The notes beneath the pieces were generated by a model that did not search any database, was not told the DNA's origin, and saw only the letters and a list, made by a program, of their open reading frames with translations. From Polyangium sp. 15x6 (lineage in GTDB: Bacteria > Myxococcota_A > Polyangia > Polyangiales > Polyangiaceae), in the NCBI RefSeq assembly GCF_029960785.1, contig NZ_JASBQE010000065.1:1-64000 (forward strand): a DNA stretch of 64,000 nt, in the 5' to 3' direction. A program made the position numbers and the translations under genes. How positions within the stretch are numbered: position 1 is the stretch's first letter; the number at the start of each line of letters is the position of its first letter. Positions 37,845-42,887 of the stretch are shown piece after piece.

Positions 37845-38927
37845 TCAGGGCGTCCAAACCGCGCGGGGGAGCGAATAGGGCCAGAACGTCGTAGCCGCCG
37901 CCAAGAGGGCGCCATCGAGCGGGTCGACGAGCTGCGCGGCCCAGCGGAGAATGACGGACGGCTTCGTCTGGAAGGCGTGAGCGATGGCGTTGGGCAAGAC
38001 GAGGTTCGGAATGCCGAGCTCGTGCACGCTTATGTCGAGAGGTTGTCGAGGCCAAAATACCAATGCATGTCGTGCAATGAGGTGCCAGCCCTCGTCGAGT
38101 AGCTGGTAGCGAATCTCTGCGATTCTGCCATTGTAACCAAGCACCGTAGCCACGGCATCGAGCGCGAACTTGGACTGATTGCTTTGAACGATGAGCGCGA
38201 ACGTGGGGCTGGTACTCTGCGCGACTTGGCTTTGGAGCATCGGAAAGTCGCCCTTCAGGTTCCGGCCCTCGGGGAGAGCATCCTGGGGCCAGCGCTGTGC
38301 CATGAGGGCGTACGTGGTGTAAAACGCCTCGTCATCCGCCACGAATTGGGTGTTGCCATGTCGCATGGCGCCTGCGCACCCTCGGAGCGCTTCGAGGAAG
38401 GTCCAAGTAAAGCGCCCGCCGGGGACGCCCCCGCCTTCCATCGTATTCTCGTCGGATCTCGCCGCGAAGAACATGCGCATGCCGGGCATGGCGCTCTCGA
38501 GGAGCTCTGCCCAGGAACGTCCGATGCCGCCGACTTCGACGACCTTGCCGAACGTACCGGACTGGCACGCGTCGAGGATCACCAGCACGGCCCGAGCGGA
38601 GACCTCTTGGAGCGCCTTGTGCAATCGACGGTAGCTGAGCGTGCCGTCGGCGAGAGCGATCCCATCCTCGCCCCCATGGCCCGAGAAGTAGAAGAGCAGG
38701 TACTCGGTGCCGATGCGGGCCATGTGCTGGAGGCAGAAAAGGACGTTTCCGACCGTCGCGTGTGGACCGAGAAGGAGAGGCGAATCCGAGGCGCTCGCCG
38801 GGCCCATCGGCCCCGTGAACGCCTCATGGACGCGCCGCGCGTCGTCTTCGGCGAACCGTAGGGGCGACGCCCCCGCAGTCCTGTTCACGCCACACACGAG
38901 TGCCCGGTACTTCATGCTGTTCGCCAC
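37845..38927 (-). CDS. Caspase-like (peptidase C14/metacaspase) protein
   Basis: This is a 360-residue protein starting at GTG 38927, which has GGAGGGG just upstream; the in-frame ATG four codons later is possible. The catalytic His84 lies in [11 protein letters not shown] and Cys121 in [10 protein letters not shown], the defining dyad of clan CD peptidases. [15 protein letters not shown] is the first strand-helix of the fold. Residues 250-360 form an extra C-terminal domain ([18 protein letters not shown]...[13 protein letters not shown]) of unknown type. Such proteins often act in signalling or conflict systems with kinases; a kinase remnant lies immediately downstream. Confidence 0.85.
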
Positions 38928-39337
38928 CCCGACCCCTCCCAGATGCTCAGGCGGGCCAACGTGGCCACGCTCGTCGGCCTGTCAAGCCGCGTAAGGCTTG
39001 GTCGCTTGCGGAGGAGCCTTGCCGCTCCGCGAGCCCGTGACCTTGCGGACGAGCTTGGCGGTGCGGGCGCGGTCCCTCTCGTCGGGCAAGGTGACCAGAT
39101 GCCGCAGCGGGATGTCGATTCGGCGGACTGACACCGGTGCCGAGGTGCGCATTCTCCTGTCGCAGACCTGCGCCGGAGAGGCGCGGCGCGATTCTCCCAT
39201 GCGCATTGGGATCCCGAGGCGTCGGTTCTTCCGGAAGAACCATGCGCCGGAGCAGTTCTCGCCACTTGACTTTTCAAACCTGCTCCGGCAGACGTTGGCT
39301 ACATTGGCATTCCCTGAAACCGTCAGAGCAGATTTTT
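38928..39337. other. 410-bp gap with decayed coding traces
   Basis: No intact gene is seen. On the minus strand 38982-39206 reads as a possible C-terminal tail (RRIDIPLRHLVTLP, ERDRARTAKLVRKVTG), which could be the remnant of a gene I cannot identify. The part from about 39230 to 39350 is less GC-rich than the surroundings. The gap separates the minus-strand caspase region from the plus-strand prenyltransferase block and may carry that block's promoter. Confidence 0.35.
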
Positions 39338-39871
39338 GTGAAAGTTCACGCTAGCTCAGGGAACCTCGGAACCAACCCTCGGCGCTCGACGACCCGGTCC
39401 AAGGCCGATGTCGTGATCATCGGTGGCGGCCTCGCCGGACTCGCGGCGGCATTTCGTGACGGTCGCATCCTCTCGGACGCCCTCCCCGACGAGGCGCTGC
39501 GCATCATCAATGCGTCCTTCGAGCAGGTCCACCCGGGCGACATTCGCGACTACATCCCCGAGAGGCAACGAGACGCGATCGATCCGCTGTATCCCGACCA
39601 CTTCGAACACGGCAACGGTTGCGCCGTCGAGGCATACCTGAACGTCCTGGGGGACAGGGTCGAGCTCGCGGAGACGGCGTCCGGCGTCCGGGTCCATTAT
39701 CGCACGGCGGACCTCGAGCGCGACGGGTGGATCGATTGCGCCGCGGCGATCGTCGCGAGCCCTGCGCACGTCGCGAGCGGCCCTCCCCGCGCGGCGCCGT
39801 TTTTTACGTCCATCGCCGGCATGGACTCGGCCATCGCCGGGCGATGGGCGACGACGCAGACGAACGGATGA
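39338..39871 (+). pseudogene. Decayed FAD-dependent oxidoreductase (amine-oxidase-like)
   Basis: The frame from GTG 39338 begins with KADVVIIGGGLAGLAAA, a perfect FAD-binding Rossmann GxGxxG, but continues directly into FRDGRILSDALPDEAL rather than the expected first helix and cofactor-binding part. The whole frame is only 177 codons; a working flavin amine oxidase needs 420-500. Later parts (GNGCAVEAYLNVLGDRVEL, DGWIDCAAAIVASPAHVA) resemble the FAD/substrate halves of such enzymes. Its TGA overlaps the ATG of the next gene (ATGA), so it was once the first, translationally coupled gene of this operon. Confidence 0.6.
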
Positions 39872-41697
39872 CAACGACCATGGACCAAACCAACGTGATC
39901 CCTGCCGACCGCCCTCGAACGAGCGCCGACGTCACGCCCGACGTCTCCGCGACGAGTTATTACGCGCATGGCTCGGCCGAGCTACGCTCGCTGGCCAGGG
40001 CGCTCGGGCAGCACGCGCAGATCGATTCGCTGCTCGGCACGTTCCGCGCGATGATCGAGCCGTGGGGATACCGCCGCGTGGGCGATCTGCGCGGGTGGCG
40101 CAGCAACGTCGCCGACGATGGAACGCCGTACGAGCTCTCCGTGGCTTTCTCGGAGGAGGAGCAACCCGAAATCCGTGTGCTCGTGGAGGCCCAGGGGGAA
40201 TCACCCGGCCTCGACGCCCTCTGGCGCGCCGGCAAGGACCTGTCGCGACGCCTGCAGCACGATTTCAATGCCTCGCTTTCGAAGCTGCACGAGGTGGAGG
40301 ACCTCTTCGAGCCGCGCGGCGCGGGGCGGCTCGCCGTGTGGCACGCGGCCGCGTTCCAGCCCGAGCAGGCGCCCGAATTCAAGATCTATCTCGATGCCCA
40401 AGCGCAGGGCACCGCGCGCGCACAGTCGGTCGTCGAAGAAGCGCTGTGGCGGCTCGGCTACCGGCACGCGTGGCGGAGAATGCTCGAGGGCCCGCTGCGG
40501 AGAGGATTTGCGCTCGACGAGCTCAAGTATTTCGCGCTCGACCTGAGCCCGCACGGCGAGGCTCGCGCGAAGGTGTACGTGAGCCACCACGGGGTATCAC
40601 TCGCGGAGCTATCGGCATCCTTGCTCCCGGACGCCTGCGACGTCGATTCCATGGTCGACTTTTGCCGTCACATGACGGGCGGGGAAGGGCCCTACACGGG
40701 CCGCCCCATTTTCACGTGCACCGCGTTCCGCGATATCCACATGAGCGCCCCGCTCTCGCAGACCCTGTACGTGCCCATCGTCGATTACACGAGCAGCGAC
40801 CACATGGTCCGACAGCGCGTGTCCGGCTACATGGACCTTCATGGTTTGCCCGTCCGGAGCTACCAGGCGGCGCTCCCCGCGAAGGCGGAGGGAAAAACCA
40901 ACCGGAAGCATAGCTACGTCGGCCTGCGCCACGACGGGGGCAAGCGCCGGCTGACGGTGTACGTCTCGCCGCAGGCCCACGCGCCGATGCCCATCACCCC
41001 GGCCCCTTCCGAGCGCAAGCTAAGGCCGGCCGAGGAGATCGTCGAGCGTTACGAGCGAAAGCACCTTCTCACCGATCACCCCTTCTTCCAGCGCCTGCAG
41101 CGCGAGCCGGTGCATTTTGGTCATCTGTGGCTCATCATGGCGAATTTCTGGGAAGGCGTGGTCCACGACTTCCCCGCCCGGCTCGCGCACGTCGTGGCCA
41201 AGGTGAGCGACGATCGGGCCCGCTGCCTGCTCGCCAAGCAGCTCAACGACGAGCTCGGCGAGGGCGACTTCCAGCGCGCCCATCGAGGCCTGTTCAGGAC
41301 ATTGCTCGACGGCCTCGCGCCCTACCGCCTCGCGCTCGACGACACGCTCCTCCTCGCCCCTGGCCGGGAGCTCCACGCGCGGCTGAACGAGCCGCTCTAT
41401 TCGACCGACGAATACGAATCGATCGGCGCCCTCATGTTGATCGAGATTTACGGCAAACAGGTCGACGTTCGCCTCGGATCCGAGTTCCGTCGCCAGCACG
41501 AGCTCCCGCGCGAGGTGCTCACGTGGCTGCACCTCCACGAGGAGCTCGAGGTCGATCACGCGGAGGATTCGCTTTGCCTGGCGAGGCTCGTCCCCGCGCG
41601 CGAGGCGCACCTCGCTGCGGCCTGGGCCGGCGCCGAGGCCGTCGCTCGGGCATCGGAGCAGTATTTCGATGCCCTCTACAGGTTGTGTTACCCGTGA
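39868..41697 (+). CDS. Fusion of DMATS/ABBA aromatic prenyltransferase and heme-oxygenase-like diiron oxidase
   Basis: Residues about 30-370 form an ABBA prenyltransferase of the indole (DMATS) kind. GTPYELS carries Glu89, the indole-NH base; KIY (172-174), RAKVY (233-237), LYVP (Tyr301) and TVYVS (Tyr365) are the Lys/Arg/Tyr shield around the diphosphate. Residues about 385-600 form a HDO domain: Glu465 and His472 (spacing as in CADD), Glu residues near 515-526, then His557, Glu561 and His564 (HxxxExxH), a complete six-ligand diiron site. So one polypeptide can attach a dimethylallyl or longer prenyl group to an aromatic amino acid-type substrate and oxidise or cleave it. The start and stop codons overlap those of the neighbours. 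An in-frame ATG at 39880 is possible. Confidence 0.85.
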   Translation: MTTTMDQTNVIPADRPRTSADVTPDVSATSYYAHGSAELRSLARALGQHAQIDSLLGTFRAMIEPWGYRRVGDLRGWRSNVADDGTPYELSVAFSEEEQPEIRVLVEAQGESPGLDALWRAGKDLSRRLQHDFNASLSKLHEVEDLFEPRGAGRLAVWHAAAFQPEQAPEFKIYLDAQAQGTARAQSVVEEALWRLGYRHAWRRMLEGPLRRGFALDELKYFALDLSPHGEARAKVYVSHHGVSLAELSASLLPDACDVDSMVDFCRHMTGGEGPYTGRPIFTCTAFRDIHMSAPLSQTLYVPIVDYTSSDHMVRQRVSGYMDLHGLPVRSYQAALPAKAEGKTNRKHSYVGLRHDGGKRRLTVYVSPQAHAPMPITPAPSERKLRPAEEIVERYERKHLLTDHPFFQRLQREPVHFGHLWLIMANFWEGVVHDFPARLAHVVAKVSDDRARCLLAKQLNDELGEGDFQRAHRGLFRTLLDGLAPYRLALDDTLLLAPGRELHARLNEPLYSTDEYESIGALMLIEIYGKQVDVRLGSEFRRQHELPREVLTWLHLHEELEVDHAEDSLCLARLVPAREAHLAAAWAGAEAVARASEQYFDALYRLCYP

Positions 41698-42887
41698 TGA
41701 CCACGAACTTCGCCCCCTACCGCCAGCGCTTTCCCGTCTTCGCGGAGAGAAACTACCTGGCCTCCCAGAGCATCGGGCCTCTCCCCGCCGAGGGGCTCGA
41801 GGACCTGACGGAGTACATCCGCAGCCGCGCGCTCAACAATCGCGCGATCGGAACCTGGTACGAGCGCGTGGAGGAGATGACCGGGCTCATCGCAAAGCTC
41901 CTGCATACGGAGCCCGCCACGATCGCGCTGCGTGACAATGCCACCGCCTGCCAGGCCGCCATTGCAGCGTCGATCCACCCGGGACCGGTACGCCGGCGGA
42001 TCATCACCACCGCCCTCGATTTCCATTCCTCCCTTCACCTCTGGAACGCGCAGGCGCAGCGTGGCTTCGAAGTCGTCGAGGTGCCGTCGTCGGATGGATC
42101 CTCGGTCTCCGAAGAGGCCATTCTCCGGGAAATCGACGAGCGCACGGCGATCGTGGCCGTATCGCTGGTCTCGCGTTACAACGCGCGCCTCGACGTCCGG
42201 GCGCTCTGCGAACGGACGCGCGCCGTGGGCGCTGTCCTCTTGCTCGACGCTTATCAGGCGGTGGGCATCGTCCCGCTCGACGTCACGCAGCTCGGCGCGG
42301 ACGTCGTCGTCGGAGGTGTCCACAAGTGGCTCTCCGGTTCGACCGGGCTCGCCTTCATGTACGTCGACCCGTCCCTCAGCGACAAGCTCGAACCCGCGTA
42401 TCCTGGGTGGTTTGCCCACAGGAGCCTCGACGCCTTCGTCACGCAAAAGACGTTCGAGGACGCCTACCTCCCGCGACTCGGCGCGCGCCGCTTCCAGCAG
42501 GGCACGCCCGGGCTGCCCTCCATTTACGGATCGCGCGCCGGACTCCGCTTCGCCCTGGAAGTCGGCGTCGAGTCGATGGAGCGACGCAACACAGAGCTCT
42601 GCGCGCTCCTCCACGACGGCGCCCTGGAGCGTGGATTCGAGGTCGTGACGCCGCGCGCGCCTTCACTTCGGGCGGGCGGCGTTTGCATTGCGGTACCGGA
42701 ACCCGAGTCGGTGGTGCAAGCCCTCGCCGAGCGGGGCATCGATATCGACCAGCGACGCCACGAGGTCCTCCGCGTGGCGCCGCACCCCTGCACGACCGAA
42801 CAGGAATGTATCGACTTCCTCGATACCCTGGCCGAGCTCTGCCCGCGCGCGCCGGGTCGAGTGCGGGCTCGACCCCCCCGGGCCTGA
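41697..42887 (+). CDS. Class V PLP enzyme (kynureninase/cysteine-desulfurase-like)
   Basis: This is a 396-residue fold-type I enzyme. RDNATACQAAIAAS is the phosphate-binding region, LLLDAYQAVGIVPLD holds the PLP-pyridine Asp, and Lys210 in GGVHKWLSG forms the Schiff base. FAHRSLDAF and FQQGTPGLPSIYGSRAG are kynureninase/isopenicillin-epimerase-type blocks. Its ATG overlaps the stop of the prenyltransferase-HDO gene (TGATG), so it is cotranslated. In this setting it may perform a C-C or C-S lyase, transamination or epimerisation step on the prenylated amino acid; which one cannot be told. Confidence 0.8.
   Translation: MTTNFAPYRQRFPVFAERNYLASQSIGPLPAEGLEDLTEYIRSRALNNRAIGTWYERVEEMTGLIAKLLHTEPATIALRDNATACQAAIAASIHPGPVRRRIITTALDFHSSLHLWNAQAQRGFEVVEVPSSDGSSVSEEAILREIDERTAIVAVSLVSRYNARLDVRALCERTRAVGAVLLLDAYQAVGIVPLDVTQLGADVVVGGVHKWLSGSTGLAFMYVDPSLSDKLEPAYPGWFAHRSLDAFVTQKTFEDAYLPRLGARRFQQGTPGLPSIYGSRAGLRFALEVGVESMERRNTELCALLHDGALERGFEVVTPRAPSLRAGGVCIAVPEPESVVQALAERGIDIDQRRHEVLRVAPHPCTTEQECIDFLDTLAELCPRAPGRVRARPPRA

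What the first reader, a model, noticed from the sequence alone, without database searches (positions are those of the whole stretch)
39868..41697. One polypeptide joins a DMATS-type aromatic prenyltransferase to a diiron oxidase
Both halves keep their catalytic residues: prenyltransferase Glu89 and the Lys/Arg/Tyr diphosphate shield (K172/Y174, R233/K235/Y237, Y301, Y365), and an HDO site with Glu465/His472 and His557/Glu561/His564. I know of no characterised bacterial enzyme with this fusion. It suggests prenylation and O2-dependent cleavage or oxidation of the same amino acid-like substrate, without release of an intermediate. Together with the coupled PLP enzyme it looks like a short, undescribed biosynthetic pathway.
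Basis: partly seen in the sequence, partly recalled or inferred. Interest (0 to 1): 0.9.

Follow-up and report, generated by a model that had tools for sequence, protein, structure and literature searches.

The report
Fused tryptophan prenyltransferase and diiron oxidase
A soil bacterium, probably a Polyangium, carries one protein that joins an enzyme that attaches an isoprene unit to tryptophan-like molecules to an iron-and-oxygen enzyme that may then oxidise them, next to a gene for a likely side-chain-cutting enzyme; the same pair of genes recurs in about a dozen related myxobacteria and looks like an undescribed route to small prenylated molecules.

Summary
In detail: window 39868-41697 is one open 609-aa frame with an N-terminal DMATS prenyltransferase (PF11991) and a C-terminal heme-oxygenase-like diiron oxidase, HDO (PF14518). 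The AlphaFold model (pLDDT 86.9, pTM 0.88) matches 6-dimethylallyltryptophan synthase over residues 28-376 (Z 43.3) and the HDO HrmI over 383-609 (Z 23.8). It is no frame error: 12 further Myxococcota loci carry the fusion, and 13 of 13 keep the E-H-E-H-E-H metal motif. One reader residue is wrong: E465 is not conserved; the motif is E462, H472, E526, H557, E561, H564. The next gene overlaps by one base and encodes a class V PLP enzyme, nearest solved relative kynureninase; it accompanies the fusion in 12 of 13 loci. Each of the 12 relatives also has an O-methyltransferase, FIST/kinase/regulator genes or a heme-motif protein nearby; the window has none. Best reading: prenylation of Trp, O2-dependent oxidation by the fused HDO, then PLP cleavage: a third kind of prenyltryptophan pathway beside the tryptophanase and flavin-monooxygenase kinds of actinomycetes. 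Substrate, product and channelling are untested. Both families are known; no paper on the fusion was found in the searched library.

The parts
39868..41001 (+). DMATS half (residues 1-378): ABBA aromatic prenyltransferase; E89, K172, Y174, R233, K235, Y237, Y301, Y365
   Evidence: PF11991 44.4 bits; PDB 6zry/6zrx E 4e-42; model residues 28-376 on 6zrx Z 43.3; residues, conservation
41002..41697 (+). HDO half (residues 379-609 and stop): heme-oxygenase-like diiron oxidase; metal motif E462, H472, E526, H557, E561, H564; low-confidence stretch 374-382 at the junction
   Evidence: PF14518 55.8 bits; model residues 383-609 on HrmI 9nh9 Z 23.8, CADD Z 22.4 over 386-605; motif 13 of 13 fusions; profile hit BesC E 8.2e-7; confidence
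41697..42887 (+). Class V PLP enzyme, kynureninase/C-S-lyase-like, presumed PLP lysine K210 in GGVHKWL; its ATG overlaps the stop of the fusion by one base (TGATG)
   Evidence: PF00266 117.8 and KYNU_C 47.1 bits (from 41772 on); best PDB hit kynureninase 1qz9 E 1.4e-28 over residues 4-384; overlap; with the fusion in 12 of 13 loci
39137..39871 (+). Short upstream frame with an FAD-type GGGLAGL motif, stop overlapping the fusion's ATG (ATGA); probably a decayed flavin-oxidase gene, perhaps not part of the system
   Evidence: only Pfam hits below cut-off; only itself found in the own genome and no match in the related loci held

Best explanation
The protein is a two-step biosynthetic enzyme. The DMATS half most likely moves a dimethylallyl group from DMAPP onto the ring of L-tryptophan; the HDO half binds two iron ions through E462, H472, E526, H557, E561 and H564 and uses O2 to oxidise the prenylated amino acid on its amine or side chain (N-oxygenation or C-C fragmentation, as in HrmI, BesC, AetD or SktA); the PLP enzyme of the overlapping gene then cleaves what is left of the side chain, and in 7 of 13 loci an O-methyltransferase is at hand to finish the molecule. 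Shown: fusion, predicted folds, motifs, gene order and conservation. Inferred: Trp as acceptor, metal content, order of steps, handover between domains, products. It would be a third kind of prenyltryptophan pathway beside the tryptophanase and flavin-monooxygenase kinds of actinomycetes, with the HDO in the place of the flavin N-oxygenase.
For: The nearest solved DMATS by sequence and fold are Trp 6- and 5-prenylating enzymes. The HDO half fits HrmI and CADD by fold and BesC by profile. HDOs that act on ring-substituted tryptophan exist: AetD (5,7-dibromo-Trp to nitrile) and SktA (5-bromo-Trp to 5-bromoskatole) (PMC13108848, section 9). In Streptomyces a DMATS works with an FMO that goes through N-hydroxytryptophan, ending in 5-dimethylallylindole-3-acetonitrile, and other clusters pair DMATS with tryptophanase (PMC3617294, passages). 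All six HDO motif residues in 13 of 13 fusions; PLP gene in 12 of 13 and O-methyltransferase in 7 of 13 loci. Of 15 DMATS loci in 377 genomes of the phylum, 8 have an HDO with metal-site residues fused or adjacent, from two subfamilies by BLAST.
Against: No substrate or product is known; by sequence the second-best solved relative is MpnD (4yl7), which takes indolactam V. TIGR03429 (DMATS) scores 87.9 bits, below its 163.85 cut-off, and the DMATS half of the relative L031/L047 is just under the Pfam cut-off (23.9 against 25). If the HDO destroys the amino acid (nitrile, skatole), a PLP amino-acid enzyme has nothing left to act on, so the step order is uncertain. L050 shows no PLP match. Three of the 15 DMATS loci have no HDO found.
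Confidence: 0.6

Rival explanations
1. Kynurenine-type route: the HDO opens the indole ring of prenyl-Trp (or acts on a kynurenine made by the genome's own tryptophan dioxygenase) and the PLP enzyme acts as a kynureninase, giving a prenylated anthranilate that the O-methyltransferase of relatives modifies.
For: The PLP enzyme's best solved match is kynureninase over nearly its whole length (1qz9, E 1.4e-28, against 1.5e-15 for the best cysteine desulfurase) and it hits KYNU_C over cut-off; GWF.H and an arginine region near the end align. It is the only TIGR01814 match at E up to 0.001 in the genome, and a tryptophan dioxygenase match lies on contig C110.
Against: TIGR01814 73.4 bits is far below its 246.4 cut-off; such sub-cut-off matches are common: 10 of 14 control genomes show one. 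The Tyr before the PLP Lys of 1qz9 is a His here (HKW invariant in 8 of 8). Indole ring opening by an HDO is not among the reactions in the review sections read (PMC13108848).
Confidence: 0.17
2. The prenyl acceptor is not tryptophan but another aromatic compound (tyrosine, histidine, kynurenine, an indole or a cyclic dipeptide), and the HDO acts on that.
For: Solved relatives of the same fold were solved with Tyr (8day) or indolactam V (MpnD), or are named for free His (FunA) or cyclic dipeptides (brevianamide F enzymes); MpnD is second by sequence.
Against: The closest relatives by sequence and fold are Trp 6- and 5-prenyltransferases; two related loci carry a beta-eliminating lyase of the tryptophanase / tyrosine phenol-lyase kind beside the DMATS (L034, L035).
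Confidence: 0.2
3. The HDO half is mainly structural or regulatory (dimer or partner contact), not catalytic.
For: Class B relatives keep a homologous C-terminal domain (hhalign probability 98.9 for four sequences) with most or all metal ligands lost (L034, L036, first copy of L054, L106), so the domain can be kept for another reason.
Against: All six motif residues in 13 of 13 class A fusions and in two stand-alone relatives, L053 and L107; the 8 relatives aligned are only 34-42% identical to the window protein overall.
Confidence: 0.06
4. Sequencing or assembly error joining two genes.
For: None found.
Against: Twelve other loci with the same single frame; model with high confidence in both halves.
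Confidence: 0.01

Closest known systems
6-dimethylallyltryptophan synthases (6zrx of Micromonospora, IptA) and the 5-DMATS of Streptomyces coelicolor (6zs0; SCO7467 in PMC3617294)
   Same: ABBA fold, Glu plus Lys/Arg/Tyr residues, 27-30% identity in the fold search; gene beside enzymes that process the amino-acid side chain (PMC3617294, passages)
   Different: Chains of about 360 residues without an HDO; side chain handled by tryptophanase or FMO; signalling neighbour there is a conservon, here FIST/HK/RR in part of the relatives
Heme-oxygenase-like dimetal oxidases: HrmI, BesC, CADD, AetD, SktA, SznF
   Same: HDO fold (Z 23.8 to HrmI), E-H-E-H-(D/E)-H motif with nearly the published spacing
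   Different: None described as fused to a prenyltransferase in the texts searched; 17-18% identity to HrmI; SznF and FlcD carry another N-terminal domain (PMC11363339, passages)
Kynureninase and class V PLP lyases
   Same: Fold family, near full-length match to 1qz9, GW motif and an aligned arginine region
   Different: Below the kynureninase model cut-off; His-Lys instead of Tyr-Lys; no Cys among the invariant columns of 8 rows, so no sign of desulfurase chemistry
Prenyltryptophan gene clusters of actinomycetes, Type A (tryptophanase) and Type B (FMO), PMC3617294
   Same: DMATS plus a side-chain enzyme, and signalling genes in part of the relatives
   Different: HDO fused to DMATS and a kynureninase-like PLP enzyme; Myxococcota

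Membership tests
DMATS aromatic prenyltransferase | PF11991 over curated cut-off | tested here: met
   44.4 bits against 25; one of the relatives, L031/L047, is at 23.9
DMATS aromatic prenyltransferase | NCBIfam TIGR03429 over curated cut-off | tested here: not met
   87.9 bits against 163.85, E 8.2e-25; subfamily model, so only the claim to that subfamily model fails
DMATS aromatic prenyltransferase | ABBA barrel fold | tested here: met
   predicted model, Z 43.3, rmsd 2.3, 346 aligned to 6zrx
DMATS aromatic prenyltransferase | catalytic Glu and diphosphate-binding Lys/Arg/Tyr set (roles recalled) | tested here: met
   E89, K172, Y174, R233, K235, Y237, Y365 in 13 of 13 fusions; position 301 Y or H
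DMATS aromatic prenyltransferase | prenyl transfer from DMAPP to Trp | not testable with these tools
   needs assay
Heme-oxygenase-like diiron oxidase (HDO) | PF14518 over curated cut-off | tested here: met
   55.8 bits against 28.9
Heme-oxygenase-like diiron oxidase (HDO) | seven-helix HDO fold | tested here: met
   predicted model 383-609 on HrmI Z 23.8, rmsd 2.5, 220 aligned; CADD Z 22.4
Heme-oxygenase-like diiron oxidase (HDO) | three His and three carboxylate ligands, E-H-E-H-(D/E)-H | tested here: met
   E462 H472 E526 H557 E561 H564, 13 of 13; motif from PMC11363339 passages
Heme-oxygenase-like diiron oxidase (HDO) | two metals bound, ligands clustered | not testable with these tools
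   model coordinates not available to scripts
Kynureninase (PLP neighbour) | TIGR01814 over curated cut-off | tested here: not met
   73.4 bits against 246.4; not filed as a kynureninase
Kynureninase (PLP neighbour) | Tyr-Lys at the PLP lysine (role recalled) | tested here: not met
   HKW invariant in 8 of 8; 1qz9 reads YKY
Type A or B prenyltryptophan cluster of actinomycetes | tryptophanase (A) beside the DMATS | tested here: not met
   no match of the L034 beta-eliminating lyase in the window
Type A or B prenyltryptophan cluster of actinomycetes | flavin-dependent monooxygenase (B) beside the DMATS | tested here: inconclusive
   only the FAD-motif remnant at 39137-39871, no Pfam hit over cut-off; no FMO query was run

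The most novel reading that the evidence does not exclude
The cassette is a self-contained signalling system of myxobacteria: the DMATS-HDO fusion, the PLP enzyme and the O-methyltransferase make a prenylated, possibly N-oxygenated indole or anthranilate signal, and the neighbouring FIST protein with its hybrid histidine kinase and response regulator (laid out like NosP/NosK/NosR) and the multiheme lipoprotein-like protein sense it or an NO-like product of it. In the window's genome only the biosynthetic core is in this window.
Probability: 0.14. Interest if true: 0.85.

Novelty: new variant of a known kind. Interest (0 to 1): 0.6.

Why it matters
It would be, as far as the searched library shows, the first diiron HDO built into a prenyltransferase, and a third way in which bacteria process prenylated tryptophan. 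A single-chain catalyst that prenylates and then oxidises an amino acid is attractive for making new indoles, and a relative in the named strain Polyangium sp. 6x1 offers a second source. Because 11 of 15 DMATS loci in the sampled genomes keep an HDO or an HDO-derived domain, the family is also a natural experiment on how a diiron site is gained and lost beside a partner enzyme.

Tried and rejected
Frame error: rejected, 12 further single-frame fusions. PLP enzyme as ordinary kynureninase or cysteine desulfurase: not filed, below the model cut-offs, no Cys among the invariant columns of 8 rows. Indiacen-type product for the window: set aside, because indiacen B was synthesised from 4-iodoindole (PMC4660955, passages; that C3 is free is my inference), the cytokinin-dehydrogenase-like oxidase of the candidate loci has no match in the window, and the genome's one PF09265 match is on contig C204. 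How often fusion happened: trees of 22 DMATS and 31 HDO rows were unresolved in depth (class B HDO-like tails were left out of the HDO tree, and two of its rows were under half full). Fold of the class B C-terminal domain: no HDO row was listed for its model, where prenyltransferases filled the list, so this says nothing; the sequence profile supports homology. Base composition shows no island: GC 0.635-0.702 in 1-kb windows over 34-48 kb.

A search with the stand-alone HDO L053 against PDB sequences gave nothing. Only two peptide patterns were used in the genome-contig scan, so its 9 loci are a lower bound; at most 3 candidates per genome were scored. Two weak matches inside the DMATS half (G108, G063; E 5.6e-4 and 9.6e-4) were not examined and are not among the 15 loci. 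The genome has 8 PF14518 matches, one of them the fusion; the other seven were not studied.

Full report
What is there. The frame 39868-41697 on the + strand codes for 609 residues without a stop. Pfam finds Trp_DMAT (PF11991, 44.4 bits, residues 74-327) and Haem_oxygenas_2 (PF14518, 55.8 bits, residues 431-595), both over the curated cut-offs. NCBIfam TIGR03429 (DMATS) is hit at E 8.2e-25 but below its cut-off. The best solved relatives of the N-half by sequence are the 6-DMATS entries 6zry/6zrx (E 4e-42), then MpnD (4yl7, 1.4e-37) and IptA (7w8u, 7.2e-32). An AlphaFold2 model from 11 aligned sequences has mean pLDDT 86.9 and pTM 0.88; segments under 50 are 1-23, 340-344 and 374-382. The structural second look places residues 28-376 on the 6-dimethylallyltryptophan synthase 6zrx (Z 43.3, rmsd 2.3, 346 aligned) and residues 383-609 on the HDO N-oxygenase HrmI (9nh9, Z 23.8, rmsd 2.5, 220 aligned); CADD follows at Z 22.4. 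A profile of ten HDO domains hits BesC at E 8.2e-7 with the motif regions aligned, and HrmI and CADD at 0.013-0.016.

Residues. In the window and 12 related fusions E89, K172, Y174, R233, K235, Y237 and Y365 are kept in 13 of 13; position 301 is Tyr or His. The spacing nearly equals that given for FlcD and the general E-H-E-H-(D/E)-H motif (PMC11363339, passages).

Distribution. A search of 377 genomes drawn from the window's phylum found 31 with a match to either half (at most 3 candidates scored per genome). A scan of genome contigs (84,980 species) with two HDO peptide patterns gave 9 loci: 8 fusions, all labelled Myxococcota, and one stand-alone HDO in the cyanobacterium Trichocoleus (its 233-aa frame). 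A search of 108 genomes of the family found 27 with a match at E up to 1e-20. After removing duplicates I count 13 distinct full-motif (class A) fusion loci: window, L047 (=L031), L052 (=L032), L033, L046, L048 (=L099), L049 (=L100), L050, L051 (=L105), L054 (=L101), L102, L103, L104. Duplicates were recognised by equal contig lengths and gene content. L049 is Polyangium sp. 6x1 (taxonomy); the same 70,892-base contig appears as G433, labelled same genus as the window, so the window's genome is by inference a Polyangium. Of the six genomes of that genus listed, G000 and G433 have a match and four do not.

Neighbourhood. The fusion's ATG overlaps the stop of an upstream frame and its stop overlaps the ATG of the PLP gene. 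A PLP match lies next to the fusion in 12 of 13 loci (not L050); in L104 it points towards the fusion from the other strand with the O-methyltransferase between. An O-methyltransferase is found in 7 of 13 (L052, L033, L049, L050, L051, L054, L104). A lipoprotein-like protein is found within the fetched stretch in 10 of 13 (L047, L052, L033, L046, L050 about 8.5 kb away, L051, L054, L102, L103, L104); it has four CxxCH motifs in 8 of these 10, two in L104 and one in L050. At least part of a FIST / hybrid histidine kinase / response regulator set is found in 7 of 13 (L047, L052, L033, L046, L048, L051, L054); weak kinase matches near 73 bits were not counted (domains). Each of the 12 relatives has at least one of these additions. 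Several contigs are short, so absences there mean little. In the window only the fusion and the PLP gene matched; none of the other queries did. The genome has four FIST matches, one below cut-off, on other contigs. FIST matches occur in 13 of 13 genomes of that call, so only their place beside the fusion (G051, G149, G343) is telling.

Wider pattern. In the 377-genome sample I count 15 DMATS loci. Six carry a fused HDO with metal-site residues (G000, G051, G343, G149; G258 C992 and G328 with another subfamily, class C), two have such an HDO as the next gene (G353, G099), three carry a fused C-terminal domain that lost most or all ligands (G249, G355, G177), one is cut by a contig end (G309), and three have none found (G367, G282, G258 C712). 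Caveats: in the four class C or separate HDOs the GH, LEA.G and H-x3-E-x2-H positions are kept, but the first carboxylate is spaced differently, and two of them score under the Pfam cut-off (22.5 and 27.7 against 28.9). The ligand-poor domain is homologous to the HDO by profile comparison, probability 98.9. Trees did not settle how often fusion occurred.

The PLP enzyme. Its best solved match is kynureninase 1qz9 (E 1.4e-28, residues 4-384 of 396), ahead of cysteine desulfurases. It has His-Lys where 1qz9 has Tyr-Lys, and scores below the kynureninase model. It is the only match to that model in its genome, but none of 13 genomes has one over the cut-off and 10 of 14 control genomes show some match; tryptophan dioxygenase is matched in 12 of 13. 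I treat it as a side-chain lyase of unsettled substrate.

Mechanism. Actinomycete DMATS clusters pair the prenyltransferase with tryptophanase (6-dimethylallylindole-3-carbaldehyde) or with an FMO that works through N-hydroxytryptophan to 5-dimethylallylindole-3-acetonitrile; all clusters in that paper had a cassette with a sensor-like histidine kinase (PMC3617294, passages). HDOs are known to oxidise ring-brominated tryptophans (AetD, SktA; PMC13108848, section 9) and other amino-acid substrates (section 4). The simplest reading is that the fused HDO oxidises the prenyl-Trp made by its own DMATS half and that the PLP enzyme trims the product. Which bond is attacked cannot be told from sequence. 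For the signalling reading: FIST proteins that bind heme and sense NO are encoded with a kinase and regulator as NosP/NosK/NosR (PMC12570481, passages).

Literature. Searches for DMATS or prenyltransferase together with HDO terms gave 0 papers, as did HDO with kynureninase. In the HDO review (outline, sections 4 and 9 and passages seen) a word search found neither 'fusion', 'fused' nor 'prenyl'. The library lacks most subscription papers, so absence is weak evidence.

Verdict. The feature is real and conserved, one ligand needs correcting, and the pathway idea is reasonable but untested. Known domain kinds in a new combination: new variant of a known kind, interest 0.6.

Noticed in passing
L036 6901-13459 (G355) and L037 4910-11409 (G177): Two genomes of one genus have a DMATS with a ligand-poor HDO-like tail next to a cytokinin-dehydrogenase-like oxidase, a small protein without Pfam match and a P450: a candidate indiacen cluster. 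G177's 10,327,335-base contig fits the 10.33 Mb given for Sandaracinus amylolyticus (abstract start), which makes indiacens; identity not verified.
   Followed up: partly
L034 6799-11886, L035 9601-14507: DMATS with a beta-eliminating lyase (PF01212; tryptophanase by recalled likeness) and a cytokinin-dehydrogenase-like oxidase, perhaps the counterpart of the actinomycete tryptophanase-type cluster. In 13 DMATS-bearing genomes, 7 of 8 PF09265 matches lie within about 3 kb of a DMATS.
   Followed up: partly
L047 4271-9869, L054 14030-19713: Conserved set of multiheme lipoprotein-like protein, FIST protein, hybrid histidine kinase (three receiver stretches in L047) and response regulator next to the fusion, like NosP/NosK/NosR in layout.
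   Followed up: partly
L053 816-1517 and L107 460-1239: Stand-alone HDOs close to the fused one (44.5% and 40% identical) followed by a histidine-kinase-like gene (Trichocoleus) or preceded by a receiver-domain match (G440).
   Followed up: no
L054 4229-13988: One locus holds both kinds side by side: an oxidase plus DMATS with ligand-poor tail, then the full DMATS-HDO, PLP and O-methyltransferase set.
   Followed up: partly
window 39137-39871: Frame with an FAD-type GGGLAGL motif, probably the remnant of a flavin oxidase, overlapping the start of the fusion.
   Followed up: partly
window 37845-38927 (-): Caspase-like peptidase (PF00656, 28.5 bits) upstream on the other strand.
   Followed up: no
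L045 4656-7157 (-): Protein of 833 aa with two HDO-domain stretches (PF14518, 105.2 bits) in a genome with DMATS genes.
   Followed up: no
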